Origin: Prochlorococcus marinus str. MIT 0919
Lineage (GTDB): Bacteria > Cyanobacteriota > Cyanobacteriia > PCC-6307 > Cyanobiaceae
Reading direction: 5' to 3'
NCBI RefSeq assembly: GCF_027359375.1
Contig: NZ_CP114779.1
Location: forward strand, 1 to 64,000
Length of the DNA stretch: 64,000 nucleotides
A model generated the notes under the pieces. The model was not told the origin of the DNA and ran no database searches. It saw only the letters and a program-made list of their open reading frames with translations. A program made the position numbers and the translations under genes. This document shows, piece after piece, positions 25,235-63,117 of this stretch (positions are counted from its first letter, which is position 1; every line of letters begins with the position of its first letter).

Positions 25235-25281
<47 letters not shown>

Positions 25282-35635: not shown

Positions 35636-35654
35636 GATTCCATTGGTAATAAGA

Positions 35655-45282: not shown

Positions 45283-45312
45283 AAGTCCTTTTAACTCCTC
45301 TTAAAACCCTAT

Positions 45313-45334
45313 TTTGGGATAAATTTGGGATAAA
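45313..45334 (+). repeat. Arm-site-like direct repeats, TTTGGGATAAA x2
   Basis: Two perfect adjacent 11-bp units ending 25 bp before the tRNA-Pro fragment. Confidence 0.75.
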
Positions 45335-45359
45335 GCCAAAATCCCATTCCTTGAAAGCC

Positions 45360-45400
45360 AGTCGGGGCGACAGGATTCGAACCTGCGACCTAGTGCTCCC
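45360..45400 (-). repeat. Partial tRNA-Pro (3' part), putative att site 1
   Basis: The same bases as in the 3' half of the tRNA-Pro gene at 63044: anticodon stem end, variable loop, T-arm and acceptor, 39 bases of the gene plus two flanking. It stops at the anticodon loop and cannot make a tRNA. Confidence 0.93.
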
Positions 45401-45446
45401 TAAGCAGTTGTAGGCATTGGACTTTTGACTATTGAAGCAATGAGTT

Positions 45447-45659
45447 TTAACAACAAGAGCAATCGTCATCACCTTCAGCGACAGGTGACTCAAAGGCATC
45501 TGCAATATCTTTAAGCATTACAGCAATAAACTCTGGAGGACATTGAAGTTGATTGATATATCCAGCACATTGCTTGGCTATATCCTGCATGCCAGGAAGA
45601 ATGATTTTATCCACTTGTTCTTCTGTTGGTTGCCACGTCATCTCGCAGTTGTCAGCCAT
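45447..45659 (-). CDS. W-x-PTEEQ small protein, copy 1
   Basis: 70 residues from ATG 45659 (MADNCEMTWQPTEEQVDK). Shares the pattern W.PT.EQ, a helix, then CP.EFI with the protein beside the integrase at 55052. Ends with a CSCC tail that may bind metal. Being next to att in both segments suggests a link to integration or excision. Confidence 0.65.
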   Translation of the reverse strand: MADNCEMTWQPTEEQVDKIILPGMQDIAKQCAGYINQLQCPPEFIAVMLKDIADAFESPVAEGDDDCSCC

Positions 45660-45830
45660 TAATTGAAAAGCAATTATCAATCCATCATGCCAAAGCACCG
45701 AACAGCATATTGGTAACACTAGTTTTTTACGCTATAGTTATTTTTTAGCTTAATTTTGCCGAGTTTGTCATGACAAATAAAGCAATATTTGTCCGCATAT
45801 TTAAAATAAATAAAAGGTAACTTTGACAAA

Positions 45831-46553
45831 ATGGCTACCAGAATAAATAAATATTTAAGTGAAGTCGGTTACTGTTCTAGAAGAGTCGCAGATAGACTAA
45901 TTGAAGAAGGAAAAGTAGACATTAATGGTAAAATTCCAGAAATGGGTACCAAGGTAGAGGAAGGTGATCAAGTAACAGTTGAAGGTCAAAGAATAGAAAA
46001 ATCAACGAACCCAAAAAACATATACTTAGCCTTTAATAAACCTGTTGGAATTGTTTGCACAACCGATAGAAGAGTAGAACCCGACAATATTATAGATTTC
46101 ATTAAATATCCTACAAGAATTTTTCCTATTGGAAGATTGGATAAGCCCAGTGAGGGATTGATTTTTTTAACTAACGATGGAGATATCGTAAATAAAATAC
46201 TCAGAGCAAGAAATAATCATGAAAAAGAATACATCGTAAGCGTTAATCGTCCGATTAATAGAGACTTTATTCAAAATATGAGTAATGGAGTTAAAATATT
46301 AGAAACCATAACTAAGAATTGTTTCGTAAAACAATTGGGGGCAAAAAAATTTAAAATTATACTCACTCAAGGACTTAACCGTCAGGTTAGGAGAATGTGT
46401 GAGTCCTTAGGCTACAGAGTACAATCATTAAAGCGTGTAAGAATTATGAATATTAAGTTAGACGTACCAACAGGAAAATATCGCGAATTTACCAAAGAAG
46501 AACTCTTAGAATTAAATAGATTACTCGAAAACTCTTCAAAAACATTTGACTAA
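45831..46553 (+). CDS. rluF: 23S rRNA pseudouridine synthase, RluF-like
   Basis: 240 residues: an N-terminal S4 RNA-binding domain (about 4-50) and an RsuA/RluB/E/F catalytic domain with GRLDKPSEGL carrying the catalytic D104, and LTQGLNRQVRRMCE. RluF modifies U2604 of 23S rRNA in E. coli. The island location and a sequence style closer to Bacteroidetes-like RluF (NGVKILETITKNC region) suggest transfer. Rare cargo for a picocyanobacterial element. Confidence 0.88.
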   Translation: MATRINKYLSEVGYCSRRVADRLIEEGKVDINGKIPEMGTKVEEGDQVTVEGQRIEKSTNPKNIYLAFNKPVGIVCTTDRRVEPDNIIDFIKYPTRIFPIGRLDKPSEGLIFLTNDGDIVNKILRARNNHEKEYIVSVNRPINRDFIQNMSNGVKILETITKNCFVKQLGAKKFKIILTQGLNRQVRRMCESLGYRVQSLKRVRIMNIKLDVPTGKYREFTKEELLELNRLLENSSKTFD

Positions 46554-46727
46554 TCAAATATCACCTCTTTTTTAGCTCAGTTCATTAGCTATAAATGTCA
46601 ATAAAAACAATGAGTAATGGAATTTTGACTTTCCCAAAATTCTTTATTTATAACCTTCTTCAATTAGTTTTTCATAATTATCCCAACAGTAAACCTACGC
46701 TAAAGAACCTTTGAGCCAGTCCCTTAA

Positions 46728-46979
46728 TCAATCCAATAAAGTACCGCCTGATAAACCTCCACCTAGATAAACCTGGCAGTATTGATAGACATATTCGTAA
46801 TCGGGTAACTTTGAACCCCTCATATTCTTAAGTCCTAATCGTTTTAATGCCTGCTTAGCTGTGAATTGAGCTGCATAATATCGAGCACAAGTATCTTTAA
46901 CTTTGAAGTCTTTCTCAGACGCAAAAGCAGCAGGTGTCAAAAGGGTTAAGAACAGCGGTGCAAGTAGTAGTCGCTTCAT
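46728..46979 (-). CDS. Small secreted protein
   Basis: 83 residues; signal peptide cut after AAFAS (about 21) and a mature domain with two cysteines (TCARYY, YCQVYL). Good ribosome-binding context. Function unknown. Confidence 0.6.
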   Translation of the reverse strand: MKRLLLAPLFLTLLTPAAFASEKDFKVKDTCARYYAAQFTAKQALKRLGLKNMRGSKLPDYEYVYQYCQVYLGGGLSGGTLLD

Positions 46980-47045
46980 AGAATAAGGAGGTCGTAGCGC
47001 AGAGCTTGTTGGCTCTCCATCGACAAAAGCATTTCTCTAAATCTA

Positions 47046-47201
47046 ATGAACATCACTAAAGCGTCCAGTAAGGACGAGGTGATTACTTCTGCTTGCGAGT
47101 TGGTCGATCAGCAAGAAGCGGTAATCAAAAACCTCAAAGAACAACAACAAGCACTTATTTATTTTTTAGGAGGTCTAACAATTATTTCTCTGATTTTTTA
47201 A
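47046..47201 (+). CDS. 51-residue protein with C-terminal membrane helix
   Basis: MNITKASSKDEVITSACELV front, a Q-rich helix, then FLGGLTIISLIF. The first 21 codons and about 30 bp upstream are repeated in inverse orientation at 57619-57715, where the rest of the gene is missing. Confidence 0.65.
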   Translation: MNITKASSKDEVITSACELVDQQEAVIKNLKEQQQALIYFLGGLTIISLIF

Positions 47202-47207
47202 AGCAAT

Positions 47208-47231
47208 AAAAAAGGGGACATAAAGCCCCAT
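47208..47231 (-). terminator. Terminator
   Basis: On the minus strand GGGGC-TTTAT-GTCCCC then six T, past the end of the 169-residue gene; may also serve the plus-strand 51-residue gene. Confidence 0.65.
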
Positions 47232-47264
47232 AGCAATATTTATGTTTTATATTTTGATTGATAG

Positions 47265-47774
47265 TTATTGCATGAAGTCGGGCAATAAGGGTTTTACATA
47301 CTTAATAATAAATTCTGGGTATTTTTTGCTAATTTTTTTATAGCAATCATACCTTTCGTCGTTAGTAATAAAACCATCACTACCAGCTTTGACAAGGCAA
47401 TTACAAAGGTATCGGCTATATTTTTTTGGAATTTGACGGCTACCTTCTGGAAGACTTTTGTCAAATTGTCTTATGCATTCACTTGTAGTAGCCCAAGGAG
47501 TTACTTCCACCTTATCTACATAGTTTTTGGAATCTGGAATTAATATCGAAAAATACATACTCAGTGGTGCCCCAATCAATCCAATTAATGCCCAATACTT
47601 AAATCTATTTGGTTGTTTCTCATCACTCTCCTTAAGCTTTTTATTTAATAGGTATAAAACCAATGGTGATGTAATCCATCCAATTTGCCCGCCAAGAGTC
47701 CCACCAAGTATGGCTAAAAGATAACCTCTTTTTTTACTAGATAAAGGTCTCTGACCTTTTTTATTAGAAGACAT
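47265..47774 (-). CDS. Membrane protein with Cys-containing C-terminal domain
   Basis: 169 residues: two helices (about 18-44 and 62-80) followed by a soluble domain of about 85 residues with four cysteines (TSECIR, YLCNCLV, RYDCYK). A second ATG 32 bp upstream (47806), in another frame, sits at the position where cargo genes begin after the integrase fragment. Function unknown. Confidence 0.6.
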   Translation of the reverse strand: MSSNKKGQRPLSSKKRGYLLAILGGTLGGQIGWITSPLVLYLLNKKLKESDEKQPNRFKYWALIGLIGAPLSMYFSILIPDSKNYVDKVEVTPWATTSECIRQFDKSLPEGSRQIPKKYSRYLCNCLVKAGSDGFITNDERYDCYKKISKKYPEFIIKYVKPLLPDFMQ

Positions 47775-47798
47775 GAAAAAAAGATACTCAACAAGCTT

Positions 47799-47931
47799 TT
47801 CATATCTGAATTATGCCGCCTTAGCAGTTTTATTTCTTTTTAGATGATCCAGCTCAACACTTCATGCAGCTAGGAATCCTTCTTCTTAAACAACCGCTGG
47901 AACATCCATACCAAGTAAATGGTTGAACCAA
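47799..47931. repeat. 133-bp repeat, copy 1 (integrase end plus truncated peptide gene)
   Basis: Nearly identical to 54595-54727. On the minus strand it carries the end of the integrase gene (RNKTAKAA and stop), then upstream of that the C-terminal 19 or so codons of the 30-residue membrane peptide. The peptide gene is cut at 47931, 2 bp before the SAP-like gene's stop. Confidence 0.88.
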
Positions 47932-47932
47932 T

Positions 47933-48286
47933 TCACATCAACAGATTCACCAGGTCAACCAACTCTTTCTTTGAAAGGCTATTTATTGGCCTTGCTGGTG
48001 GCTCTACGCCCTTCTCTTTAAGAGCAGTTATTAGTCCAGCCTTTTTGAGCTTGTTAAATCCTTTGACCCCGTTTTCTTTGCAAAGAGATTGAAGAGTCTT
48101 GTTTGTCTGTTTCTCAAATGTTCCAGAGCCAAGAAGATCTTTAACAGATTCAGGTAAAGCATTGTCAGGACTTGTTTTAGACTTGCCAATACTGTTGAGC
48201 CCTTCTTCTAAAGCTCTAAGGCTTCTGGCATCTGATTGAGCAACCTTTTGAAGATTTGCACGTAAAGCGTCAGCTATCTGTCCCAT
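47933..48286 (-). CDS. SAP-like domain protein
   Basis: 117 residues. The C-terminal half has two helix-turn units of SAP/Rho-N type: CKENGVKGFNKLKKAGLITA and then NSLSKKELVDLVNLLM. Such domains bind DNA or RNA. It starts 4 bp after the coiled-coil gene's stop, so the two form an operon facing away from the nuclease-ParA gene. Confidence 0.65.
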   Translation of the reverse strand: MGQIADALRANLQKVAQSDARSLRALEEGLNSIGKSKTSPDNALPESVKDLLGSGTFEKQTNKTLQSLCKENGVKGFNKLKKAGLITALKEKGVEPPARPINSLSKKELVDLVNLLM

Positions 48287-48290
48287 TGCT

Positions 48291-49163
48291 CTATTTGGGT
48301 ATCTCTTTCATTGACCCTTGCTTGTCAAGTAAAGGCTTGATCTCCTCTTTGGTGTTACTCCAAATTTTGTTGAAGCTACTTACGGCATTAGTCAATTCTG
48401 CGATCGGTGCACCACCTGAATAATTTCTTCTTCCTGTCTGATACTCCTTATACCCAGCGGCGAGGGCATCACCGACATCTTCTAATTCTTCAATGATTTT
48501 AAGTAGTACTTCAAGAGTCTGATAGGCATCTTTTCTAACTGATCCCTCTCTTCTGGCTGTACCTGTAAAAAATTCCCTTATTCGATCTGGAAAGCCTTTT
48601 GAAACCTGAGCTTCCAACTCTTCTGTGAGTTCTTGTTCCTTTACCTGGCTGATCTCCAGCTGTTGTTTTAACGAAGATATTTCATCATTACCTTGTTTTA
48701 TGGCTTGCAGGTTTTCTTTGATTACTACTTCTTGGTCATCACATTGCTTCAACTTGTCTTTTAAGTGCTCCTTTAATCCAGCGATTTCTTCTTTGCTGTT
48801 TTGTAATTCGCGAACTTGTCTCTCCTGGAGGTTACGGAGGGTTTGACGTGCTTCTAATTCTTTCGCTTCACTTGCCTCTAATTTCTCTCGCAAATCAACG
48901 ATTTCTTTACTGTCTTGCTCTAGTTTCCTTTTGACTTGCTTTAATTCGCTTAGGCATTGATCTCGTTCTGATGCTTTGGCTTCACTAGTTTCCAGTTTGT
49001 ATTCAAAAGAAGCGATCTGCTCGTTCTTTAGTTGGATCTCCTTGAGATATGGGGTAGGACCATCTAGCAAAAACCTTGGCAGTCTTAGCAAGCCTTTGAG
49101 AAGAGCTTTCGACGATGCAAATAATCTTGCAAGAAGCTGGTATGTGGAGGTGCCATCTTTCAT
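48291..49163 (-). CDS. Long coiled-coil protein
   Basis: 290 residues. After a basic, amphipathic front (about 1-40) there is a coiled coil of about 150 residues with regular heptads, then a helical C-terminal domain (about 195-290, RREGSVRKDAYQTLEVLLKI). It resembles structural or tethering proteins, not a known enzyme. Divergent from the nuclease-ParA gene with 156 bp of shared promoter space. Confidence 0.65.
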   Translation of the reverse strand: MKDGTSTYQLLARLFASSKALLKGLLRLPRFLLDGPTPYLKEIQLKNEQIASFEYKLETSEAKASERDQCLSELKQVKRKLEQDSKEIVDLREKLEASEAKELEARQTLRNLQERQVRELQNSKEEIAGLKEHLKDKLKQCDDQEVVIKENLQAIKQGNDEISSLKQQLEISQVKEQELTEELEAQVSKGFPDRIREFFTGTARREGSVRKDAYQTLEVLLKIIEELEDVGDALAAGYKEYQTGRRNYSGGAPIAELTNAVSSFNKIWSNTKEEIKPLLDKQGSMKEIPK

Positions 49164-49319
49164 CCCTTGTCGACCGTGATCTTCTTCATAACAATAGTTT
49201 GGATCTTGTATTTAGCTTTTTCTCCAAATTGAAATGAATAGCAGGGAATTGCATTTGTTTAAATTGGAAGGAAGAAATTTCCAGAAAGGACTGCTAGACC
49301 ATATGAAGAGGGAGGCTCT

Positions 49320-50750
49320 TTGGAAAGAATGGGAACGTCAAAGCAAACTCAAAGTTTAATAAATCAAATAGCCCAAAAATGTGAGTATTGGGAAAAAGAT
49401 CAGAATGTCTACGAAGGTTCTGAGAAGGAAGTCGAAATTCTTACTCTCCATCTTCTAGATATTTTAGGAATTTCCCAAGAAAATATAAAAGCTCCTTATC
49501 AATGTGGTGCGAGCAAAAAAGTTGACTTTGCAGCAAAGTTTGAGTCATCGGTTCAAACTTCAACTTTCGCAAAACCAGATTTAATTATTGAATGCAAATC
49601 ACCTTCGATTTCTTTTACAGATGAGACAAAGAAATATGCTGACACAGTATTTCAACTCCAAGGGTATTTGCGAGGCATTAAATGTAAGTCAGTTAGTTAT
49701 GGAATTATTTTCAATGGGCTAAATGTACAGCTCTTTAGAAAACATGGAATGCTATCTTACCCAATCAGTCCAATATTATCTGTAAACCAGAAAAACATCA
49801 GTCAAACAATTAAATACCTCCAGCAGAATATTCAGACGAATAATAATAAAAGAGGTACAATTATTACTGTTTGGAATAATAAAGGTGGTGTAGGGAAAAC
49901 AACCATTGCGCAAAGCCTTGCTATTTTACTTAATGAGAAAATTACTTATGGAAACAAAGAAAAAAACAGAGTCTTGTTAGTTGATTATGATCATAACCAA
50001 GGAGACTTGACAGCCAATTGCAAAATGGATCCTAGCGAAGGAGAAACAAAAAGACTTTTAGATGCAGACTATTTAAAAAAGTTGACGACAGAAGATATAA
50101 ACAACTCTCTACATTCATTTACAAATATTCCAGTTAAAGGTAGAAAACCAAGATTCTCCTTTGAAGTCAAGGTGCTTAGAGCAGATCAAGAGTTAAGTCG
50201 CTTAAGTAGTGAATATATTAAAGATTTTGCAGCTAATGAGAGATTAGCGCTAAGGAAATTATGCTTAAGAATGGCAAAGAATTTTGATTACATAGTTATA
50301 GATGCACCTCCTAATTATGAGCAGAGCATCTTCTCCAAAGAAGCAGTAAGTGCAGCAGATTGTATACTTCCAGTCGCTCTATATCAAAATGATAATTCAA
50401 TAAGAAATTATGCAAGAGCTGCAATTGATCATATCCAATCTACACAAAAGATACGTAAAGATGGTGGTCCCTATAGCCTAGGTATCTGGTTTAACAGATG
50501 GAGATCCACATGGATTGCGACTGTGACAAGAAACTCCGTGAAGAAACAGATTGATGCTGCTAGTAATACTAAAAACCAAATAGAATTAAAACGAATATTT
50601 TATAAGAATAAAGGACGTGAACTAAGAAAGATTGTTGAGACAGCAGATATTGCAAGGTCAATCATGGATGCCAAGGGACTACCAGGCGTTGTTCGTTTTA
50701 TCAGGGCAAGAAGTGCCTTTGATTTTCTTTTAAATGAATTTTCCGATTAA
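49320..50750 (+). CDS. Nuclease-like domain fused to ParA ATPase
   Basis: 476 residues. Part 1 (about 1-165) resembles the N-terminal nuclease domain of type I restriction HsdR: conserved acidic E35/E38 region, VDFAA, and PDLIIECKSPS with D87, E91 and K93 as a D...ExK site, then a YGIIFNGLNVQLFRK strand. Part 2 (about 175-476) is a ParA/MinD-type ATPase: deviant Walker A NNKGGVGKTT (186-195), LLVDYDHNQGD and IVIDAPPN (about 325-332). TTG start at 49320 with GGGAGG 5 bp before; ATG 49329 is possible. I do not know this fusion from a named system. Confidence 0.8.
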   Translation: MERMGTSKQTQSLINQIAQKCEYWEKDQNVYEGSEKEVEILTLHLLDILGISQENIKAPYQCGASKKVDFAAKFESSVQTSTFAKPDLIIECKSPSISFTDETKKYADTVFQLQGYLRGIKCKSVSYGIIFNGLNVQLFRKHGMLSYPISPILSVNQKNISQTIKYLQQNIQTNNNKRGTIITVWNNKGGVGKTTIAQSLAILLNEKITYGNKEKNRVLLVDYDHNQGDLTANCKMDPSEGETKRLLDADYLKKLTTEDINNSLHSFTNIPVKGRKPRFSFEVKVLRADQELSRLSSEYIKDFAANERLALRKLCLRMAKNFDYIVIDAPPNYEQSIFSKEAVSAADCILPVALYQNDNSIRNYARAAIDHIQSTQKIRKDGGPYSLGIWFNRWRSTWIATVTRNSVKKQIDAASNTKNQIELKRIFYKNKGRELRKIVETADIARSIMDAKGLPGVVRFIRARSAFDFLLNEFSD

Positions 50751-50752
50751 TC

Positions 50753-51694
50753 ATGAGCCAAACATCTATTGATCTAATCCGTATACCAACCAAGGACATC
50801 TTTATTGAAGATGATCCAGAAATGGATGACATTAAAATTTTAGGTTTATCAAATAATTACTTAGAGAATAAAGACTCTTTAAATTTCATTCCTATTACAG
50901 TTATTCCAGAAAGAGGTGGTAATTATCGACTGATTCAAGGGCACGAAATATTTCATGCTCTTATGCAGGCCGGAAAAGAATGGGTACTCGCTCTCCGAAT
51001 TGGTGTTGACGAAATTTCAGGAGAAGTCTGGAAGTATGAACTTGGTCTTTCAAATCCTAGGTTGAATATCTGCAATTTAGATGCCAATGAATTTGAAACT
51101 GCACTGGAATATATTCAAAGAACGATCAAGAAATTTTCGAAGATAAAAGTAGAAAAGCTAGTCCAAGAATTTGCTAATGACCCCACAAGAAGATTTTGGT
51201 CATCTCTAGAAATTTTGGGTGAAGCAAAATGCGGAATCACAAAAACAAATTTTCCTTTACTTTCACAGTTTTTATATGCATCACCTGATCTCTCTGAGTT
51301 AGAGCCATTAGCTCCTATAAATATAAATCGTGCTTCAGAGGACGAGATTGCCAATCAGATACAGCGCCTGAAGATCGAACCAGACGCTGGGAAATTAAGG
51401 AAGATCGATGCCTTATCAACCGCTAGAGCCATTGTTGCGGAAGAGGATCGAATTTATTGGTCTCTCAGCAAACATCTGTTCAGTGCAAAAACAGGGCTCA
51501 CAAAACCTTTATGGCCTCTAGTTGAAACAGGCTTTTTCTTTGAACCTGCTCCGACTCCTGTCCCGAACACTTCTAAGTTCTTATTGGGTCAACTTTCTAA
51601 AGCTCAATTGGTAAAAGAGGCAAAATCTCGTAACCTTGATACTGCAAGACTACTAAAGCATGCGCTAGTGGATCTACTCAGTTCGAATCAATAA
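50753..51694 (+). CDS. ParB-like protein with helical middle and SAP-like end
   Basis: 313 residues, 2 bp after the nuclease-ParA gene. The front has a ParB-fold core: FIPITVIPERGG, YRLIQGHEIFHAL (59-71) in place of ParB's GERR-type box, and WVLALRIGVDE. The middle holds ININRASEDEIANQI, like a helix-hairpin-helix, and the end (about 278-313) LSKAQLVKEAKSRNLD is SAP-like, similar to the end of the protein at 47933. Probably the DNA-binding partner of the ParA. Confidence 0.7.
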   Translation: MSQTSIDLIRIPTKDIFIEDDPEMDDIKILGLSNNYLENKDSLNFIPITVIPERGGNYRLIQGHEIFHALMQAGKEWVLALRIGVDEISGEVWKYELGLSNPRLNICNLDANEFETALEYIQRTIKKFSKIKVEKLVQEFANDPTRRFWSSLEILGEAKCGITKTNFPLLSQFLYASPDLSELEPLAPININRASEDEIANQIQRLKIEPDAGKLRKIDALSTARAIVAEEDRIYWSLSKHLFSAKTGLTKPLWPLVETGFFFEPAPTPVPNTSKFLLGQLSKAQLVKEAKSRNLDTARLLKHALVDLLSSNQ

Positions 51695-51816
51695 TTAGGC
51701 CGCTTCGAAAAGTAATTGAAAGTGTGAATAATTGATCCTGATGAGTCTTTTCTTAGGCATGGCAGCAGACCTTTATTAATCAATAGAGAATTGCTGAAAA
51801 TGATCTAATTGGTTAC

Positions 51817-52179
51817 TTATAAAATCCACACATCATCTGCAGGCAAGAAGTAGGAAGACGAAACGTCTTCTTCTACTGGATCCCTTTTTGCATTTCTATA
51901 GGGATCTTTGCGAGAAAAGAACCAGATAAGACTTTTCCCAATATTTCCTAGTTTTAGAAATAGATTTGTCTTAGAAGCAGATAGGAATAGAGACTTTTCC
52001 AGACTTTTTATTTGAGTTTCTTTTTCTTTCATGACCAACTTTACGATGTGATGAAACTCGTCATCAATAGAAGATTCACCATGTCGTTGATAATGTTTAT
52101 TCAGGTCAATTAGTTGTTCGTATGAGAGGGCTGATGTGTCTTGGTAGCACTCCTCCCAGACGTCGGGCTCTAAGCACAT
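51817..52179 (-). CDS. Hypothetical protein, helical
   Basis: 120 residues, mostly helical, with a weak hydrophobic stretch near 75-90 (LGNIGKSLIWFF). Possible start of MCLEPDVWEECYQ. It is upstream of nothing on its strand and converges on the ParB-like gene. Function unknown. Confidence 0.5.
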   Translation of the reverse strand: MCLEPDVWEECYQDTSALSYEQLIDLNKHYQRHGESSIDDEFHHIVKLVMKEKETQIKSLEKSLFLSASKTNLFLKLGNIGKSLIWFFSRKDPYRNAKRDPVEEDVSSSYFLPADDVWIL

Positions 52180-52214
52180 GGACTTTTCGGTGATAGGGGT
52201 TTAAAAAATAAGTT

Positions 52215-53015
52215 TTATTCGACAATGAAAGTGACTCCCATTACGGCCGTAATATCTTTTCTGATCGTTGTTGTGTCATAAGAACCCCAGCTGCTGACCT
52301 TGGTTGAGTTGGGGACTGTTATTTGAAAAACACCAGTATCAACTTTCTTCACAGTGCCAAGACTTGAACCTGCTTGCCGGACAATTGCCTCTGCTCGCGT
52401 TCGTGCATCTTTAGTTGCCTTAGAAAGCATGTCGACTCGTTTTGCTGCAAGCTTTGTATATGTGAACTTTGGCCGACTAGGCTTTACAAGGACTCCCTGG
52501 CCAAGAAGTGCACTGATTTTTCGATATGTCTTATCAATATTAAAAACATCATTACTTTCAATTTCTATCCATTGAGTAGTGATCCATTTTGTGGAAATAA
52601 TTTCACCTGTTTTTGAATTTTTGGTTTTCACCACGGATGTCGAAGCAGGTAGTAAGGCTACAGATTGAGAGTCATTCGTTCGAACCCCATTGCGATTAAG
52701 AAACTCGATAGTTTTTCTTATGGATTCCTGATGCTTTTTATAGGAGTTCACTTGTGATTTCCCTTCTGCCTGTATTTTGATGTCCCACTTTGCGATGTCA
52801 CTTTCTATCGGTTCTGTACTCGCTCCCGTTACAGTGATGTAATTCACAGGAGGCTTGAGTCCATCTACCAAGATTTTTGATGCGCTTATAAATCCAATAA
52901 GTCCGCCAACTGATAAAACTGTCGTGGCAAAAACAAGAGGAGGTGTGCGCCGAATAATTTTAACCGCATTAAGAGGTAAAGCTCTTATGCGAGATAGAAC
53001 TTCCATTGGATTCAA
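52215..53015 (-). CDS. SIMPL domain (DUF541) protein
   Basis: 266 residues: an N-terminal anchor (about 25-48) and a SIMPL domain, with ITVTGASTEPIESDIAKWDI at its start and TKDARTRAEAIVRQAGSSLG, the family's central helix. SIMPL proteins are periplasmic or surface proteins with a role in stress or signalling; none is settled. Common in genomic islands. Confidence 0.85.
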   Translation of the reverse strand: MNPMEVLSRIRALPLNAVKIIRRTPPLVFATTVLSVGGLIGFISASKILVDGLKPPVNYITVTGASTEPIESDIAKWDIKIQAEGKSQVNSYKKHQESIRKTIEFLNRNGVRTNDSQSVALLPASTSVVKTKNSKTGEIISTKWITTQWIEIESNDVFNIDKTYRKISALLGQGVLVKPSRPKFTYTKLAAKRVDMLSKATKDARTRAEAIVRQAGSSLGTVKKVDTGVFQITVPNSTKVSSWGSYDTTTIRKDITAVMGVTFIVE

Positions 53016-53319
53016 TTGTGAGGAGTCGTATTTAGCGAAAAATCAATTCAATTCAATGAATCTCTGGTCTTCTGTTTTTGACCAAGGAACTGGTATTTCG
53101 CTTCCCATCAGGACACAGTTGTCAGACGTGCCAATTTGTGAGTTGGTTCCCAATCTTGCCGTGACCTTTCGATGTTGGCAAGACTTCTTTCGACAAATTA
53201 TGAATATTATTTTTAAGCGACAAGAGGTCCTTCTGCTCTTTTTCTTTGATCGATCTATTTTGCAGGGAATACATCGATTAAGCTAGTAAAGATAGCTTAT
53301 ATAGTAAGAGTTATTTTTT
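53016..53319. other. Gene-free stretch
   Basis: Holds the start region of the SIMPL gene and the promoter of the next gene. A plus-strand frame (53056-53286) is open but has no ribosome-binding site and an unlikely composition. Confidence 0.4.
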
Positions 53320-53607
53320 ATGAAAAAGTTTTTTTTAGGTCCACTATTGCTTGGCTTTATATCTCTCATTTGTCCTGAGTCAATTAATGCTGATATTCGA
53401 TCAAATTGTTTTAAAGAGTGGGGAGATGATTATTCAATGGTTGAATTCTGCATAGAAGAACAGACCAAAGCTCGAAACAATGTCTATAGAAGTCCAGGTA
53501 ACAACATAAAAAATAATTGTTTGAATGAGTGGGGAGATGATTATTCAATGGTTGAATTCTGCATAGAGGAACAATCTGGTGCATTGAAAAGACTTCAGGG
53601 TTACTAG
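53320..53607 (+). CDS. Secreted protein with a tandem repeat
   Basis: 95 residues: signal peptide (about 1-24, cut at SINADI) then two near-identical units, NCFKEWGDDYSMVEFCIEEQ and NCLNEWGDDYSMVEFCIEEQ. Each unit has two cysteines and the DNA of the core is also nearly identical, so the duplication is recent. A disulfide within each unit is likely. Confidence 0.7.
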   Translation: MKKFFLGPLLLGFISLICPESINADIRSNCFKEWGDDYSMVEFCIEEQTKARNNVYRSPGNNIKNNCLNEWGDDYSMVEFCIEEQSGALKRLQGY

Positions 53608-53627
53608 TAACTTGATTTTTTTTACTA

Positions 53628-53915
53628 TTAAAAAGAAGAGGGTTCTTCCAGAGGTGAAATAGCATCAAAGTGAATCCATTTGCCATTTTTAATCTTCCAA
53701 TGTTGTCCAGGTGCACCAGGATACCAACGTCCAGTTTTAAACAACTTCTTCGCATCTTCAAAAACTTTTAGACTCTCTTTTAACTTCTCCTTAGATTCAG
53801 GAGAGCATTGGGGGTCTAATAATTTGGCTTGCGTTTCTTTTATGTCCTCTTCTACTTGACGTAATAACTGCTTAATTCTCTGTTCTCGCTTTTCTTCGTC
53901 TGATTTTTCATTCAT
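53628..53915 (-). CDS. Coiled-coil protein with aromatic C-terminal motif
   Basis: 95 residues: charged coiled coil (about 1-55), then WYPGAPGQHWKIKNGKWIHF, an aromatic glycine-rich module. Function unknown. Confidence 0.6.
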   Translation of the reverse strand: MNEKSDEEKREQRIKQLLRQVEEDIKETQAKLLDPQCSPESKEKLKESLKVFEDAKKLFKTGRWYPGAPGQHWKIKNGKWIHFDAISPLEEPSSF

Positions 53916-53970
53916 TAGTCTTTTTCTCGTATCACCTTCTAGCGAATCTATCTGAACTCTTCATGCAGCT

Positions 53971-54063
53971 TTAACCTGATTTTTTAAATCTCGCCTTAAG
54001 GTCTTTAAAGAACTTTTTCCAAAAGCTAATAACAGAGTCAGGAATAGGTTTATTGATAGGCAT
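53971..54063 (-). CDS. MPINKPIPDS leader-type peptide, copy 3
   Basis: 30 residues: MPINKPIPDSVISFWKK then FFKDLKARFKKSG. The first 17 residues match copies at 42304 and 44331; the basic helical end is its own. Probably membrane- or nucleic-acid-binding if made. Confidence 0.55.
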   Translation of the reverse strand: MPINKPIPDSVISFWKKFFKDLKARFKKSG

Positions 54064-54110
54064 GATTTTAGTTTATTGAGCAAGTCATACAGAAAGGACC
54101 CTTCACTGAA

Positions 54111-54599
54111 TCAATAACCTGAAGTGTAATTACGTCGACCTTCTATTCTTTCAGCTTTAGGGGGTTCTTTATAAGGAGCTTCACAAGTACTCGACCATCC
54201 TATTTGAGGATCCCCATTCGGACATTGATTATTATTTCCAGCACGAACCTTTGGACCTGGTTCTAAATTAGCCCTTGTTTCTCCAGGCTTCGGGGTACAT
54301 TTCCATTTTTTTCCAGCAAGTAAAGGATTATTCCGCCCTCCCATTTTGCAAATAACCTCAGCGCAATATCCTTGTCCGATAAACGCATAACCATAAGGAC
54401 AGGAATTGCCTCTAGAGCTAGCTGTCCCTGGATTGTTGAAAACCTCTACAGAGTTGGATCTCCCAACATTTGCATTGACACAACCTTGATAATCCTTTGC
54501 TTGTAGACACATCTTGTGAACCTTCTTACTTACTTCAGCTTGAACAGGTAAAGCCAGACCAGCAGTTAGGGCAACCAGTAATAAGAGTTTCTGTTTCAT
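54111..54599 (-). CDS. Secreted Cys-rich protein
   Basis: 162 residues with a clear signal peptide (cut after PVQA, about 22). The mature part has eight cysteines and repeated CPYGYAF / CPNGDPQ turns, so a disulfide-rich extracellular protein is likely. Its ATG is 9 bp past an integrase stop codon fragment, in the same arrangement as the lipoprotein gene at 56458. Confidence 0.65.
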   Translation of the reverse strand: MKQKLLLLVALTAGLALPVQAEVSKKVHKMCLQAKDYQGCVNANVGRSNSVEVFNNPGTASSRGNSCPYGYAFIGQGYCAEVICKMGGRNNPLLAGKKWKCTPKPGETRANLEPGPKVRAGNNNQCPNGDPQIGWSSTCEAPYKEPPKAERIEGRRNYTSGY

Positions 54600-54727
54600 A
54601 TCTGAATTATGCAGCCTTAGCAGTTTTATTTCTTTTTAGATGATCCAGCTCAACACTTCATGCAGCTAGGAATCCTTCTTCTTAAAAAACCTTTGGAACA
54701 TCCAAACCAAGTAAATGGTTGAACCAA
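54595..54727. repeat. 133-bp repeat, copy 2
   Basis: Same as 47799-47931: integrase 3' end on the minus strand followed by the membrane peptide gene, which is complete here. Marks the end of an element unit next to att. Confidence 0.88.
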
Positions 54728-54758
54728 CTAACAAAAGCATTGGGAAGATTGTTTCCAT
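54666..54758 (-). CDS. 30-residue single-helix peptide at an element end, copy 2
   Basis: METIFPMLLLVGSTIYLVW then MFQRFFKKKDS. Differs from copy 1 (45190) in two residues. It lies 41 bp from the arm-like repeats and 87 bp from the tRNA fragment. Confidence 0.7.
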   Translation of the reverse strand: METIFPMLLLVGSTIYLVWMFQRFFKKKDS

Positions 54759-54799
54759 AAGTCCGTTAAATCCCTTTAAATTCGGTGATCCTCCTTACC

Positions 54800-54820
54800 T
54801 TTTGCGTGAATTTTGCGTGA
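54800..54820 (+). repeat. Arm-site-like direct repeats, TTTTGCGTGA x2
   Basis: Two 10-bp units at 11-bp period (54800-54809, 54811-54820), ending 24-25 bp before the att region. Confidence 0.75.
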
Positions 54821-54844
54821 CCCTGTGTAGGGCTATTCCCTCAG

Positions 54845-54893
54845 ATCCTAGTCGGGGCGACAGGATTCGAACCTGCGACCTAGTGCTCCCAAA
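54845..54893 (-). repeat. Partial tRNA-Pro (3' part), putative att site 2
   Basis: ATCCTAGTCGGGGCGACAGG onward, 49 bases shared with the right end (63038-63086), covering the tRNA 3' half to the anticodon loop. It defines the left end of the right segment. Confidence 0.93.
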
Positions 54894-55000
54894 ACACTAG
54901 GTGTACTTACCGCCATTACTAGAGTTATAAGCTACAAAGCCAGTTCTCAGCTAAAATTAAAATCCACTCTTGTTCAGAAAAGATCACAATAAGTTGCTTC

Positions 55001-55019
55001 TTTAGCACGCCTTTAGCAC
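55001..55019 (+). repeat. Arm-site-like direct repeats, TTTAGCAC x2 (left end)
   Basis: Two 8-bp units at 11-bp period, 107 bp inside att site 2. The same pair occurs at 62995, so both ends of the right segment carry it. Confidence 0.75.
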
Positions 55020-55051
55020 AATGATACCTATTGACCCCCAAGCACTAGGTG

Positions 55052-55270
55052 ATGCCAGATAAGTGGAAACCAACCCAAGAGCAACAGACAGGAGTGATCT
55101 CTAGCGTCAATGAATTTATTACCGATGAACTGAACGAATTGCAGAAAGCGCTGGATTGTCCCGATGAATTTATCTATGACTTCCTAGAAGAAATCAGAAA
55201 TCGTTGGTCACCAGATAGTTGCCATTCCAAAGCAAGACAACATAAAAAGGAGAATCCAGATGCCTATTAA
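55052..55270 (+). CDS. W-x-PTEEQ small protein, copy 2
   Basis: 72 residues from ATG 55052 (MPDKWKPTQEQQTGVISS); a GTG 3 bp earlier is possible. Shared pattern with 45447: W.PT.EQ and CPDEFI. It overlaps the integrase start by 11 bp, so it is translated with it; a recombination-direction role is an inference from this place. Confidence 0.7.
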   Translation: MPDKWKPTQEQQTGVISSVNEFITDELNELQKALDCPDEFIYDFLEEIRNRWSPDSCHSKARQHKKENPDAY

Positions 55271-56450
55271 GACTGAAACTGATCCTTGGGTAGGGAACTT
55301 TAGGGATTTATTAAAAGCTTCTATTGCAGATGGCGATCAATGGTTCGTTACTAACTACAAGGGCAAAATGCGCCTTCAAGTGAAAGTCGATGGAAAAGTT
55401 TCAACAAGAATCCTTCCTTTTGATTGGACTAAATCAGGAGCAGCCAAAGCACTTCCTTATATTCAGCAAATTTACAAAAGATATTCTTTAGCCAAAGGGA
55501 AAAAGACACTTGCTCAAGCCTGTGAAGTTACAAGTGCATCAGATTCAAAGCATGAATTGAAATGGGATGAGCTAATTACAGACTTCAGAAAGTTTGTTCC
55601 TAATGCTGGGGAATTGACGTGGAAGAAAAGTTATATACCCGTTCTTACGAAAGCTGGCGTATTAATGCAGCGGGCTAAAGGTAAACCGATTGATGGTGAA
55701 TCATTAATGCTCAAATCTTTAGAGCAATGGGAGCAAGGAACACGAGGAAGACAAATTGCTCGCCGTAGTCTTAGGAACTTTCTTGATTGGGCTGTTTTAC
55801 GTGGAAAGCTTCCAGCCGCTTATGCACCGCCTGCAACAGTTCCAGAAATCAGGAAGCCTAAAAGAATAGGGTTTGCTTTAAGTGATGTTCAGATACTTCG
55901 ATTAATTGAATCTGAAACCGATGAGAAGTGGAGATTCGGCCTACAACTTTTAAGCGTTTATGGATTACGTCCTGAAGAATTGAGATTTTTAAGGTTCAAA
56001 GGCAATGAACTTTGGTCGATCTATCAAAAATCAAAAGGTGGAACAAAAGGAGATAAAACTGAACCTCGCAGATTGCATCCTTTACTGCTTACCAATATGG
56101 ATGGAGAGATTATTGATTGGAAGTTAGAGAAGCGATTAAAAGCTGGTGAATCACTCCCACCTTTAGGACAAGAAGGTAAAGGATCTGAAGCACTTCGTAC
56201 ACGCTTAAGAGGTAAAGCTGTTTGGAAAGCACTCCAAAAAGAAGCGGAACATATAGGAGAGGTTTTAGTCCCCTACACATTCCGCCATCGGTATGCAAAA
56301 CAATCTCATGCTGCTGGTTTCCCTGTTTCTAATATTGCCGCTGCGATGGGGCACACGATTGAAGTTCACTTAGAAAGTTATGCCCGCTTTGTTCCTGATG
56401 GAACTGCTGATCTTTACGCCAAAAGAAATAAAACTGCTAAGGCTGCATAA
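55260..56450 (+). CDS. int: Tyrosine recombinase (integrase)
   Basis: 396 residues. An N-terminal arm-binding region (about 1-95), a core-binding domain (about 100-190) and a catalytic domain with R237 (YGLRPEELRF), the FRH triad R342-H343, GH (364-365) and the tyrosine nucleophile Y374 in LESYARF. The usual first histidine of HxxR is a tyrosine (Y339), a change seen in some active families. It should recombine att in the tRNA-Pro 3' half. Three fragments of its 3' end lie elsewhere in the island. Confidence 0.93.
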   Translation: MPIKTETDPWVGNFRDLLKASIADGDQWFVTNYKGKMRLQVKVDGKVSTRILPFDWTKSGAAKALPYIQQIYKRYSLAKGKKTLAQACEVTSASDSKHELKWDELITDFRKFVPNAGELTWKKSYIPVLTKAGVLMQRAKGKPIDGESLMLKSLEQWEQGTRGRQIARRSLRNFLDWAVLRGKLPAAYAPPATVPEIRKPKRIGFALSDVQILRLIESETDEKWRFGLQLLSVYGLRPEELRFLRFKGNELWSIYQKSKGGTKGDKTEPRRLHPLLLTNMDGEIIDWKLEKRLKAGESLPPLGQEGKGSEALRTRLRGKAVWKALQKEAEHIGEVLVPYTFRHRYAKQSHAAGFPVSNIAAAMGHTIEVHLESYARFVPDGTADLYAKRNKTAKAA

Positions 56451-56457
56451 TTCAGAT

Positions 56458-56847
56458 ATGAAACGCTTACTACTTCCCCTACTCGCTGCGCTGGCACTCT
56501 CAATAGTGGGGTGTAAGAGTAATCAATCTGAAAAGGATCTTGTCTATCTGGAGTGCTCTAGGACTCTTCAAGACAATGGAGAAAAATGGATTACAAAATA
56601 CGCCATCAATATTGAGGCGAATACAGTTGATTTTTATAGCCAATTAGATTCTTTCTCTAAGCCAGTCAAATATGGACCAGACAAGGTTGAAATTACAGAT
56701 ACTAATATCATCATTTCTGGCCATGGAGTCTCTATGGATTTAGGCGGAGAGACAACAATCAATAGATCTACTTTGAAGTTGAGATTTAAATATCCTCATG
56801 GAGCTAGTCTTGAAGCTTCTTGTAAAAGCATTGAAGACCCTGCATGA
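56458..56847 (+). CDS. Lipoprotein
   Basis: 129 residues, starts 7 bp after the integrase stop. Signal peptide with lipobox ALSIVGC (C at about 19) and a beta-rich mature domain. The same spacer and ATG recur before other exported genes (54599, 47806), so this spot receives exported cargo. Function unknown. Confidence 0.7.
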   Translation: MKRLLLPLLAALALSIVGCKSNQSEKDLVYLECSRTLQDNGEKWITKYAINIEANTVDFYSQLDSFSKPVKYGPDKVEITDTNIIISGHGVSMDLGGETTINRSTLKLRFKYPHGASLEASCKSIEDPA

Positions 56848-56901
56848 AGACCTGAGCTAGGTCAGCTATAAAGGGGATAAGAGAGGAGGGCTATTGGAAT
56901 T

Positions 56902-57615
56902 ATGAAAAAAGTAAAGAATGACTTTCTGTTAAAAGATAAAGATGGAAAAGAACTATGGCTATGGACTGAAGCTGATACTGCTTTCGATTCAATTAAGAAT
57001 GCATGTGATATTGATACTTTAAGGTATTATGTGTTGACCGGTGTATATAGGTTAAATTTAAAGATAACTGACTGGTATGTCGAAAATACCCAGCAGAGTA
57101 TCTATACCGAAACCGTTAATTTCTTCGATAAACATGAAGATGAAATTGTTAGATATGTTATGGATAATAGCAATATGCTTAAGGAAGGAATTGATCTCAA
57201 TGTGTTTGCCAAAACTGATTTTGTATCGACATATATTGAATTGATTTCAGAGAAAATTTACAATGAAGCTAAGCCCAACTCTGCATTATGGGAACTTTAC
57301 CTCGACTATGAAGAAGAGGATCTAGAAAATATTTGGTGCGGGAGTAGATGCATTGGAGGAGCAGCACATTGTCATCAAACTGAGGCTGAAACTGTTCCAT
57401 TCTTTGATAAACATGAAGATGAAATTGTTAGCTATATTATTAATCACTGGGATGAGTGTATCCTTACCGATTTGTTTGAGGAAAGCAAAGGCAATCTAAA
57501 CAAGTATAAGAATGATGTTGTCTGGTTTTATATTGAATGGGCTGCGCAAAGACATCTGCCTTTCATATATAAACAAGAAGAAGAAGAAGAAGAAGACTAC
57601 GATGACGAGGAATGA
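56902..57615 (+). CDS. Protein with two FFDKHEDEIV repeats
   Basis: 237 residues, acidic and helical. The segment ETV.FFDKHEDEIV occurs twice (about 70-85 and 165-180), so it is a duplicated domain. The C-terminus is a run of E and D. Resembles phage-borne 'DUF7222-like' proteins in composition; I cannot confirm this. Cytoplasmic. Confidence 0.6.
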   Translation: MKKVKNDFLLKDKDGKELWLWTEADTAFDSIKNACDIDTLRYYVLTGVYRLNLKITDWYVENTQQSIYTETVNFFDKHEDEIVRYVMDNSNMLKEGIDLNVFAKTDFVSTYIELISEKIYNEAKPNSALWELYLDYEEEDLENIWCGSRCIGGAAHCHQTEAETVPFFDKHEDEIVSYIINHWDECILTDLFEESKGNLNKYKNDVVWFYIEWAAQRHLPFIYKQEEEEEEDYDDEE

Positions 57616-57618
57616 GAA

Positions 57619-57715
57619 ATCGACCAACTCGCAAGCAGAAGTAATCACCTCGTCCTTACTGGACGCTTTAGTGATGTTCATTAGATTAAAAAAAATGCTT
57701 TTGTCGATGGAGGAC
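57619..57715 (-). pseudogene. Inverted fragment of the 47046 gene
   Basis: On the minus strand, the first 21 codons (MNITKASSKDEVITSACELV) and 5' flank of the 47046 gene, with a few changes, joined to the end of the FFDKHEDEIV gene. It is a junction of exchanged modules. The rest of the gap (57716-57893) has no gene. Confidence 0.85.
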
Positions 57716-57893
57716 TCATGCCCTTCGCTGTCGACCTACTAAGTCTAGGTTCTTCTGGGCTTTATAACAGTGGGTTATCCGAAAGGCAGACAAATTGTTT
57801 AGCGTAGGCTTTCTAAAGTAGGGACACAAGCAGAAATAGAGTCATACAAAGGGATTTAATGAATTTGTTAAGTAGATTCAATCAAAGTTACCT

Positions 57894-58115
57894 TTACAGT
57901 TGCTTGTGAAGTACTCCAGTAGGTCGCCATTGTGTAATCCCTGCCATGTGTTCCTTTAATGGAGCCTTGCCGCGAGGTTCTAATTCCAAATATTTACGCC
58001 CATTGACCTCCTTTAAATAGTCATCGAGCCAACCATCAGAAATCATCCGATAAATTTGTGATCTCGACTTGTAGCCCAACTGTTTGGCGGTTTCGCCTAT
58101 AGAACAAAGTTTCAT
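57894..58115 (-). CDS. Excisionase-like HTH protein (AlpA/MerR type)
   Basis: 73 residues with a winged helix-turn-helix near the start (CSIGETAKQLGYKSRSQIYR). Such small proteins act as recombination directionality factors or as repressors of the element. The place in the segment supports that use, but it is inferred. Confidence 0.7.
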   Translation of the reverse strand: MKLCSIGETAKQLGYKSRSQIYRMISDGWLDDYLKEVNGRKYLELEPRGKAPLKEHMAGITQWRPTGVLHKQL

Positions 58116-58333
58116 GATGGAATGGTTTTGGTTTTAAAAAAGTGTCTGTACTTATTTCTGTTAAAACCCTTTAAACACTCGTTAATTGTCGGTAAAATAT
58201 TTAATTGCCGTCAACTTGTCCATGCTTTAAAAAGCTGTGGCTAGCTGAAATTTGAGGTGCGAATATACCCTCAAAAGATTGATATAAAAGGACCCATGCA
58301 ACAAGTTCATAATATTTACTGTTACTTCTTGAA

Positions 58334-59191
58334 TCAAGAAAAGAATGAGCCTTGGACATTCTCCCTTTGCTTACTGTCAGCTTGATGAACTGCTTTTGCA
58401 TACTGTTCTGAATAAGCACAGTTTTTACAACACTCATTCGGTTCAGGGATTTGATGCTGATTCATAAGAGCAACCATCTCATCAACTTCTTCTTCGATCC
58501 AATAGCTATTCCAGTTATAGGGAACGAGGTATTCGTCAAAGTTCATCGTCTTATGGAAGCCATCGTCATCTCTTTTGGCATTGCAGACCAAGAAGTAAGA
58601 CGTTGGATGGACATCAAACCCCATACCTGAAAGCAGATAGGCATAGAAATCCATTTGAATCTTGTATCCATCGTGATATGGATCATCTAAATAGTCTTGC
58701 TTATCAACAACACCATTCTTTGCTTGAGATTTGTAGTCCACCACGATTAACTGCTTGGTTCTGGTGTCCTGCCATATATCGTCGACTCCTCCCGTCAAAA
58801 TAATGCTGGTGTCTTTGTGTCTAAGCATCAATCCACGATGAAGAGAATTTCTCCAGTTATCCATTTCTGGATGATCAAAAGGAACTACATGTCCTAACCC
58901 ATTAGCAGCAAATAAACGATGTGGTGTCTGAGTTTCTCGGCACTCATCAAATTCTTTTTTAAGTAGAAGGTCAGTGGTTTCATTGAGAGTCCAACCGGGT
59001 GTTCCAGGCGGATCAAGACCCATGACTCGATCTAGATAAAAGCATCTTTTACAAGTCAGGAAGTTTGAGAAACGACCTCTACTGATCTTGAAATCTGCTG
59101 TTTGATTAGGTTTATAAGAAGACGATTCTCTACTACGGACTCCAGTTGCTTTTACAGGTTCTTTTTTGCCGTTTCTTTTGAGGTCAATCAT
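58334..59191 (-). CDS. PD-(D/E)XK nuclease, Cas4/RecB-like
   Basis: 285 residues. Catalytic core GGVDDIW (134-140) and VVDYKS (D152, K154). Cysteines at 47 and 50 (CKRCFYLDRVMGL) and a C-terminal group (ECCKNCAYSEQY, about 252-264) could hold a 4Fe-4S cluster as in Cas4 and AddB. Expected activity: DNA end trimming. No CRISPR nearby. Last gene of the TPR operon; the first 17 codons are duplicated at 44331. Confidence 0.85.
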   Translation of the reverse strand: MIDLKRNGKKEPVKATGVRSRESSSYKPNQTADFKISRGRFSNFLTCKRCFYLDRVMGLDPPGTPGWTLNETTDLLLKKEFDECRETQTPHRLFAANGLGHVVPFDHPEMDNWRNSLHRGLMLRHKDTSIILTGGVDDIWQDTRTKQLIVVDYKSQAKNGVVDKQDYLDDPYHDGYKIQMDFYAYLLSGMGFDVHPTSYFLVCNAKRDDDGFHKTMNFDEYLVPYNWNSYWIEEEVDEMVALMNQHQIPEPNECCKNCAYSEQYAKAVHQADSKQRENVQGSFFS

Positions 59192-63013: not shown

Positions 63014-63043
63014 AACTGTTTTTACTATTCCCTGAAATCCTAG

Positions 63044-63117
63044 TCGGGGCGACAGGATTCGAACCTGCGACCTAGTGCTCCCAAAGCACCCGCGCTACCA
63101 AACTGCGCCACGCCCCG
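63044..63117 (-). tRNA. trnP-UGG: tRNA-Pro(UGG), intact, island integration target
   Basis: 74 nt: acceptor CGGGGCG/CGCCCCG, anticodon TGG in GTGCTTTGGGAGCAC, T-loop TTCGAAT. CCA not encoded. Its 3' end faces the island, and its 3' half is repeated at 45360 and 54845, so integration keeps a working tRNA. Confidence 0.97.

What the first reader, a model, noticed from the sequence alone, without database searches (positions are those of the whole stretch)
47933..51694. Candidate new system: nuclease-ParA fusion, ParB-like/SAP protein and a divergent coiled-coil/SAP operon
A D...ExK nuclease-like domain of the HsdR N-terminal type joined to a complete ParA ATPase is unusual. Its partner has a ParB-like fold, a helix-hairpin-helix-like middle and a SAP-like end; a SAP-like protein and a long coiled-coil protein face it across 156 bp. 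ParA/ParB logic (ATP-driven positioning) linked to DNA cutting could serve element segregation, or defence against phage or rival elements. No standard type I methylase is present.
Basis: partly seen in the sequence, partly recalled or inferred. Interest (0 to 1): 0.88.

Follow-up and report, generated by a model that had tools for sequence, protein, structure and literature searches.

The report
Nuclease-ParA/ParB-like gene pair, cyanobacteria
Two adjacent genes in a small marine cyanobacterium encode a DNA-cutting enzyme domain fused to a DNA-segregation motor, plus its DNA-binding partner; the same pair occurs, with its cutting site intact, on chromosomes, plasmids and mobile islands across cyanobacteria, and its job has not been described.

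Summary
The core is a two-gene operon: a restriction-type (HSDR_N, PD-(D/E)xK) nuclease domain fused to a complete ParA ATPase (49329-50750+), and a partner with a ParB N-terminal fold and a SAP/Rho_N tail (50753-51694+). In 60 of 386 cyanobacterial genomes the nuclease profile matches (43 of them at E<1e-40), and the partner lies directly downstream in 37 of 42 loci examined. The nuclease residues are conserved in 48-50 of 50 homologues. The partner lacks ParB's CTP motif and ParA-binding motif (0 of 45).

The facing coiled-coil/SAP pair is a separate cassette. It usually occurs without the operon, and in two genomes it is the only recognised gene pair in a ~2 kb tRNA-Pro-flanked segment. Here both sit in a tRNA-Pro island made of tandem integrated elements.

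In two relatives an intact HEPN RNase domain is fused in front of the nuclease-ParA. In another, the operon shares an element with an integrase and an AAA_25 ATPase gene. I favour a ParA/ParB-type module that cuts DNA to favour its carrier (exclusion or defence, about 0.4) over a plain partition system (about 0.3). No activity has been shown.

The parts
49329..50750 (+). Gene 1: PD-(D/E)xK (HSDR_N-type) nuclease-ParA fusion, 473 aa from ATG 49329 (476 aa from TTG 49320)
49332..49829 (+). Nuclease domain; in TTG numbering E35, D69, E91-x-K93, Q112 (QxxxY)
   Evidence: HSDR_N_2 in 14 of 18 members; residues conserved 50, 49, 50, 48 and 50 of 50; helix-helix-strand-strand-helix-strand-strand order predicted
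49857..50747 (+). ParA ATPase domain (deviant Walker A KGGVGKTT with signature lysine)
   Evidence: AAA_31 at 49857-50375; fold matches pNOB8 ParA, Soj, ParF, TP228 ParA with Z 11-12.5
50753..51694 (+). Gene 2: ParB_N-fold partner with duplicated central unit and C-terminal SAP/Rho_N-like end (313 aa), 2 bp after gene 1
48291..49163 (-). Coiled-coil protein with a conserved C-terminal domain (residues about 190-286); independent neighbouring cassette, not part of the module
47933..48286 (-). 117-aa SAP/Rho_N-like protein, operon partner of the coiled-coil gene; independent cassette
45346..45406 (-). Partial tRNA-Pro copy (att remnant, 93.5%), left end of the segment that holds the finding
54833..54897 (-). 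Partial tRNA-Pro copy (att remnant, 95.4%), right end of that segment
63043..63117 (-). Intact tRNA-Pro(TGG), integration site
55260..56450 (+). Divergent tyrosine integrase, first gene of the adjacent element; its homologue shares one att-bounded segment with genes 1 and 2 in genome G005
45305..58312 (.). 13 kb present here but replaced by about 0.78 kb at the same tRNA-Pro locus in same-genus genome G002

Best explanation
What it is (well supported): an accessory two-gene operon, seen so far in cyanobacteria, that encodes a restriction-type nuclease fused to a ParA ATPase, plus a ParB-fold/SAP DNA-binding partner. In this genome it is cargo of a tRNA-Pro integrative element. How it most likely works (inferred): ATP-bound ParA dimerises and coats non-specific DNA, as ParA proteins do. 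That would pair two nuclease domains and license double-strand cutting. The partner loads on its own DNA through its SAP/Rho_N end and ParB-like domain and switches the ATPase off there, so carrier DNA is spared while competing plasmids, elements or phage DNA are cut. It is thus a DNA-exclusion or restriction module on a ParA/ParB chassis rather than plain segregation machinery. The nuclease site and ATPase are shown by sequence only; target, cutting, partner contact and biological effect are all inferred.
For: Nuclease residues E, D, ExK and Q conserved in 48-50 of 50 distinct homologues, as expected for an active enzyme rather than a leftover fold. The closest confident relatives of the domain are restriction domains, in single-chain N6-methylase restriction enzymes. 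In two genomes (G010, G064) the same protein carries an extra N-terminal HEPN_Swt1 RNase domain (1.5e-25, 2e-26) with an intact RNKWAH motif; HEPN domains of this family are repeatedly tied to restriction and conflict systems (PMC3710099). Patchy distribution: nuclease profile in 60 of 386 cyanobacteria, 43 at E<1e-40, with decayed copies (L286, L290). Tree: plasmid and IMG/VR copies nest among chromosomal ones and one family (f31) appears in separate places. Nostoc plasmids that carry it also carry ParM or a separate ParA(B), so it is not needed there for partition.
Against: No cutting, phage or plasmid phenotype is known. Neighbours of chromosomal copies show no clear defence-island enrichment: 117 PADLOC families matched among 133 neighbours against 93 among 133 control genes, few of them defence-specific. 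No modification gene or other self-marking activity was recognised. In at least one genus (g116) the locus appears stable and vertically inherited. On Pseudanabaena plasmid ABRG53g a divergent member is the only annotated ParA-like gene, and on phage-plasmid pLBA the only one in the parts read, which fits partition. In G005 it shares an element with an integrase and an AAA_25 ATPase, a replication-plus-partition look.
Confidence: 0.42

Rival explanations
1. A variant plasmid/element partition system: the nuclease-like domain takes the place of the N-terminal DNA-binding domain of larger ParAs, and the ParB/SAP partner binds a centromere, so that excised or plasmid forms are inherited. The nuclease domain would bind or resolve DNA rather than restrict it.
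For: ParA plus directly adjacent ParB_N-fold, DNA-binding partner; presence on Nostoc, Pseudanabaena and Leptolyngbya plasmids; only annotated ParA-like gene on ABRG53g and in the parts of pLBA read; in G005 one att-bounded segment holds integrase, the operon and an AAA_25 ATPase gene. CTP-independent ParB-like partners exist (PMC12260392).
Against: Most copies found are chromosomal; only 7 of 72,556 plasmid records carry the partner. 0 of 45 partners have the CTP motif or the LG[RK]G ParA-binding motif. No repeat or palindrome shared among loci was seen upstream. Does not explain strict conservation of the nuclease site or the HEPN fusion.
Confidence: 0.3
2. An addiction or toxin module: the nuclease (and in some relatives the HEPN RNase) is held in check by the ATPase and partner, and loss of the element releases it.
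For: Nuclease and RNase domains in one operon with a small DNA-binding partner; island and plasmid carriage.
Against: A large ATPase is unusual for toxin-antitoxin pairs. In family f26 the fusion persists without any partner next to it, so the partner is not an obligatory antidote.
Confidence: 0.12
3. A housekeeping DNA-maintenance or repair factor of cyanobacterial chromosomes.
For: Conserved chromosomal location in genus g116 and in the f26 lineage.
Against: Found in a minority of genomes, mobile, absent from same-genus genomes G001 and G002, with decayed copies.
Confidence: 0.1
4. The four genes together form one new system, as first proposed.
For: The two gene pairs are neighbours in G000 and G035.
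Against: They occur apart in nearly all other genomes, their relative orientation differs between G000 and G035, and the coiled-coil/SAP pair alone fills ~2 kb tRNA-Pro-flanked segments in G033 and G079.
Confidence: 0.04

Closest known systems
Type I ParABS partition systems (P1/SopA-type ParA with extra N-terminal domain; Soj/Spo0J)
   Same: ParA ATPase with deviant Walker A, followed by a gene for a ParB_N-fold DNA-binding protein
   Different: N-terminal domain is a restriction-type nuclease; partner lacks the CTP (GERR) and LG[RK]G motifs, shows no ParB HTH match and has a SAP/Rho_N end; mostly chromosomal accessory locus; no parS-like repeats seen
ParATS of SCP2 (PMC12260392)
   Same: ParA with a ParB-like partner that works without CTP
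   Different: ParT lacks the ParB CTPase domain altogether; mainly Actinomycetota when paired with ParA; no nuclease
ParB-CTPase-fold fusions surveyed in PMC12704722
   Same: ParB_N fold joined to lineage-specific domains
   Different: That survey reports only the DUF3850 fusion as consistently next to parA; it used Pfam gathering cut-offs, which the partner described here falls below, so this family was probably missed
HSDR_N domain of type I R subunits and of single-chain N6_Mtase restriction enzymes
   Same: Nuclease fold and E...D...ExK...Q residues
   Different: No translocase helicase and no methylase; joined to ParA instead
Tycheposons / tRNA-bound integrative elements of Prochlorococcus (Hackl et al. 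2023, not readable here)
   Same: tRNA integration site, tyrosine recombinase, variable cargo, repeated partial tRNA copies
   Different: The integrase here is very divergent (Pfam 0.0039) and sits at tRNA-Pro; not compared with their element families. A separate new picocyanobacterial integrase family (PMC10187409) uses tRNA-Phe or tRNA-Cys

Membership tests
PD-(D/E)xK / HSDR_N nuclease | Catalytic D, ExK and accessory E/Q residues in the right order | tested here: met
   E35 50/50, D69 49/50, E91 50/50, K93 48/50, Q112 50/50; hhalign 98.6%
PD-(D/E)xK / HSDR_N nuclease | Nuclease fold in three dimensions | tested here: inconclusive
   Predicted secondary-structure order fits, but the model is of modest confidence (N-terminal pLDDT about 40-79) and Foldseek/VIA hits covered only the ParA part
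PD-(D/E)xK / HSDR_N nuclease | DNA cleavage | not testable with these tools
   needs biochemistry
ParA ATPase | KGGVGKT deviant Walker A and ParA fold | tested here: met
   AAA_31 3.2e-18; fold matches to Soj, ParF, pNOB8 ParA
Type I ParABS | Partner has ParB N-terminal fold | tested here: met
   ParB_N in 13 of 19 members; partner profile finds true ParBs next to ParAs; fold search
Type I ParABS | CTP-binding GERR-type motif in partner | tested here: not met
   0 of 45 partners
Type I ParABS | ParA-activating LG[RK]G peptide in partner | tested here: not met
   0 of 45 partners
Type I ParABS | Centromere repeats next to the operon | tested here: inconclusive
   No three-fold repeats upstream in 24 of 26 loci and no element shared among loci; a single short site could escape
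Known anti-phage defence systems (PADLOC) | Match to a described system | tested here: not met
   No credible match for genes 1 and 2; only coiled-coil similarity to JetC for the neighbouring gene
tRNA-bound integrative element | Partial tRNA copies bounding the segment, intact tRNA and integrase nearby | tested here: met
   45346-45406, 54833-54897, 63043-63117; same arrangement in G005
Tycheposon | Integrase and core genes of the published tycheposon families | not tested
   defining paper and its profiles not available here

The most novel reading that the evidence does not exclude
A ParA-driven restriction system: ATP-dependent ParA dimers on DNA pair nuclease domains and cut DNA not protected by the ParB/SAP partner, giving carrier elements and cyanobacterial hosts a way to exclude plasmids or phages that uses segregation machinery and no methylation.
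Probability: 0.35. Interest if true: 0.88.

Novelty: new variant of a known kind. Interest (0 to 1): 0.62.

Why it matters
ParA and ParB are known for moving DNA and other cargo, not for cutting it. A cyanobacterial operon that keeps an intact restriction-type active site on a ParA, with a ParB-fold partner that has lost the CTP and ParA-binding motifs, suggests the segregation chassis was reused for DNA conflict, or that some partition systems need a nuclease. Either answer would be new. The module is short (about 2.4 kb) and simple to test in E. coli or Synechocystis.

Tried and rejected
Four-gene system: rejected by co-occurrence and orientation. Known defence system: no PADLOC match for genes 1 and 2. 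Defence-island association: not clearly above a control set of 133 genes from the same genomes. Shared centromere-like repeats upstream: none found. Wide homologue scan in GTDB contigs: the KGGVGKTT pattern pulled in ordinary ParAs, so it gave only one distant nuclease-ParA, L104. Viral contigs: one member, L184, in 2.9 million contigs. In 49 genomes reached through those other ParA hits (various non-cyanobacterial phyla) the nuclease profile gave one weak match in a 130-aa frame, so outside cyanobacteria the fusion is at least rare; this sample is small. Profile search of the nuclease domain in PDB sequences gave only chance hits. Structure model of the partner is confident only in its N-terminal domain, so the helix-hairpin-helix middle stays unproven. 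Fold search of the fusion model returned only ParA-type matches; that says nothing about the nuclease domain. Literature: no description of a nuclease-ParA fusion found in the papers searchable here.
Full report
Observation. The four ORFs are present as described. The coiled-coil gene (48291-49163, minus) and the 117-aa SAP-like gene (47933-48286, minus) face it. The host is a 1,716,770-base single-contig genome in the same genus as G002, whose length of 1,688,963 bases I recall as that of Prochlorococcus MIT 9211 (from memory). Only one match to the fusion exists in the genome.

The fusion. The C-terminal two thirds are a ParA ATPase: Pfam AAA_31 3.2e-18, PHROG ParA-like 1.9e-26, motif NNKGGVGKTT, and a model whose best structural neighbours include pNOB8 ParA, Soj, ParF and TP228 ParA with Z 11-12.5 (the model is of modest confidence, mean pLDDT 51.5). 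The N-terminal 165 residues hit Pfam HSDR_N_2 below its cut-off for this protein (7.4e-4), but 14 of 18 homologues hit it (best 7.8e-8) and 6 hit HSDR_N. A profile of the domain aligns with genuine HSDR_N domains of N6_Mtase restriction proteins at 98.6% probability, E 1.3e-15, over the E, D, ExK, Q, G and N positions. In 50 distinct strong homologues the residues equivalent to E35, D69, E91, K93 and Q112 are kept in 50, 49, 50, 48 and 50. The Q lies in a Q-x-x-x-Y arrangement, as in RecB/HsdR-type nucleases (established knowledge). Such conservation over about 30% sequence identity argues for an active nuclease; cutting itself is untested.

The partner. Single sequences score poorly, but 13 of 19 family members hit ParB_N, 10 hit Rho_N and 8 hit SAP. 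The family profile picks out true ParBs lying next to true ParAs in unrelated bacteria (E 2e-7 to 0.03), and the N-terminal model matches ParB, Noc, SerK-like and sulfiredoxin structures (only that part of the model is confident). None of 45 members has a GERR/GCHR-type nucleotide motif or an LG[RK]G ParA-binding motif. So it has the ParB fold but not two features that define canonical ParB. In the Prochlorococcus members the central unit (R-x-W ... K-x-G-hT-K) occurs twice; in most others once.

Distribution. Among 149 relatives, about 25 have a full-length fusion, and the partner was found in 23 genomes. In a sample of 386 genomes of the phylum, 60 match the nuclease profile and 43 do so at E<1e-40. 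Of 42 loci examined widely, 37 have the partner directly next to the fusion or within one small ORF of it; the exceptions are three members of one family (f26), G411, and one locus cut by a contig end. No other gene family is shared widely by these neighbourhoods. Copies lie on large chromosomes, on Nostoc plasmids, and on one IMG/VR contig; a divergent subfamily lies on a further Nostoc plasmid, Pseudanabaena ABRG53g and the Leptolyngbya phage-plasmid pLBA. A maximum-likelihood tree nests the Nostoc plasmid and IMG/VR copies among chromosomal ones and places members of family f31 in separate places, which means movement between replicons and hosts. In genus g116 the location is conserved, so the operon can also settle.

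The second pair. The coiled-coil protein's C-terminal domain and the 117-aa SAP-like protein form their own gene pair in about 15 other picocyanobacterial genomes, of which only G035 has the fusion operon; by chance about 0.9 shared genomes would be expected against 2 seen (from the counts). In G035 the two pairs are adjacent but on the same strand, not divergent. In G033 and G079 this pair is the only recognised gene pair in a segment of about 2 kb between an intact tRNA-Pro and a partial tRNA-Pro copy. It is an independent cassette of the same integration hot spot.

Island. The window holds an intact tRNA-Pro(TGG) at 63043-63117 and partial copies of its 3' half at 45346-45406 and 54833-54897. 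The finding lies between the two partial copies; the next segment starts with a divergent tyrosine integrase (55260-56450; Pfam 0.0039). In same-genus genome G002 the same locus lacks 13.0 kb (45305-58312), replaced by about 0.78 kb. In G005 the operon lies between partial tRNA-Pro copies at 437269 and 448610, with an integrase 61% identical to the window's at the segment's start and an AAA_25 ATPase gene right after the partner; AAA_25 includes plasmid RepA helicases (established knowledge). In G035 the operon is about 9 kb from tRNA-Pro. This is cargo of tRNA-bound integrative elements, resembling the tycheposons reported for Prochlorococcus; that paper could not be read here.

Function. Two readings compete. 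For conflict or exclusion: the nuclease site is under strict selection; the domain's nearest confident kin are restriction domains; and in G010 and G064 the fusion carries an additional HEPN_Swt1 domain (1.5e-25 and 2e-26) with an intact RNKWAH motif, a family repeatedly associated with restriction and other conflict systems (PMC3710099). The Nostoc plasmids have ParM or a separate ParA(B) as well. For partition: the ParA plus ParB-fold architecture, plasmid carriage, the lack of another annotated ParA on ABRG53g and in the parts of pLBA read, and the integrase/AAA_25 company in G005. Against a simple partition role: mostly chromosomal carriage, no shared repeats upstream, missing ParB motifs, and no reason to keep a nuclease site. 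Against defence: no convincing enrichment of defence genes nearby compared with 133 control genes (117 against 93 PADLOC families matched, few of them defence-specific). I put exclusion/restriction at about 0.42 and partition at about 0.3. The proposed switch, ATP-bound ParA dimers pairing nuclease domains on DNA with the partner turning this off on its own DNA, is inference throughout.

Known kinds. The nearest kinds are type I ParABS, the CTP-independent ParATS (PMC12260392), and ParB-fold fusions (PMC12704722), whose survey reports only the DUF3850 fusion as consistently next to parA and used cut-offs the present partner does not reach. No description of a nuclease-ParA pair was found in the searchable literature, which does not include most subscription journals. 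I class it as a new variant of the ParA/ParB kind.

Noticed in passing
window 47933-49163; L092 8057-10200; L093 786-2834: Coiled-coil/SAP gene pair that is the only recognised gene pair in ~2 kb tRNA-Pro-flanked segments in two genomes: a candidate minimal non-autonomous integrative cassette.
   Followed up: partly
L029 8782-11004 (-), L030 11622-13688 (+): Nuclease-ParA fusions with an extra N-terminal HEPN_Swt1 domain and intact Rx4H motif (RNKWAH).
   Followed up: partly
window 32784-33362 and 35651-36228: 579-bp inverted repeat, 99.8% identical, each arm with the same 162-aa Lys/Ala-rich histone-H1-like ORF.
   Followed up: no
window 58334-59191 (-): PD-(D/E)xK/Cas4-like nuclease gene (PDDEXK_1 1e-10) near tRNA-Pro, 95-97% identical in same-genus genome G002.
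   Followed up: partly
window 55260-56450: Very divergent tyrosine integrase; no relative among 50,697 phage records; a 61% homologue and a second, 29% homologue each lie next to a partial tRNA-Pro copy in G005.
   Followed up: partly
L028 12896-13819: Mrr-type restriction endonuclease gene in the next tRNA-Pro-bounded segment of G005.
   Followed up: no
L316-L320 and L321: The same nuclease domain type occurs in single-chain N6-methylase restriction enzymes (~660 aa); a weaker match lies in a 1333-aa Eco57I-type protein.
   Followed up: partly
window 25237-25276: 40-bp perfect palindrome.
   Followed up: no
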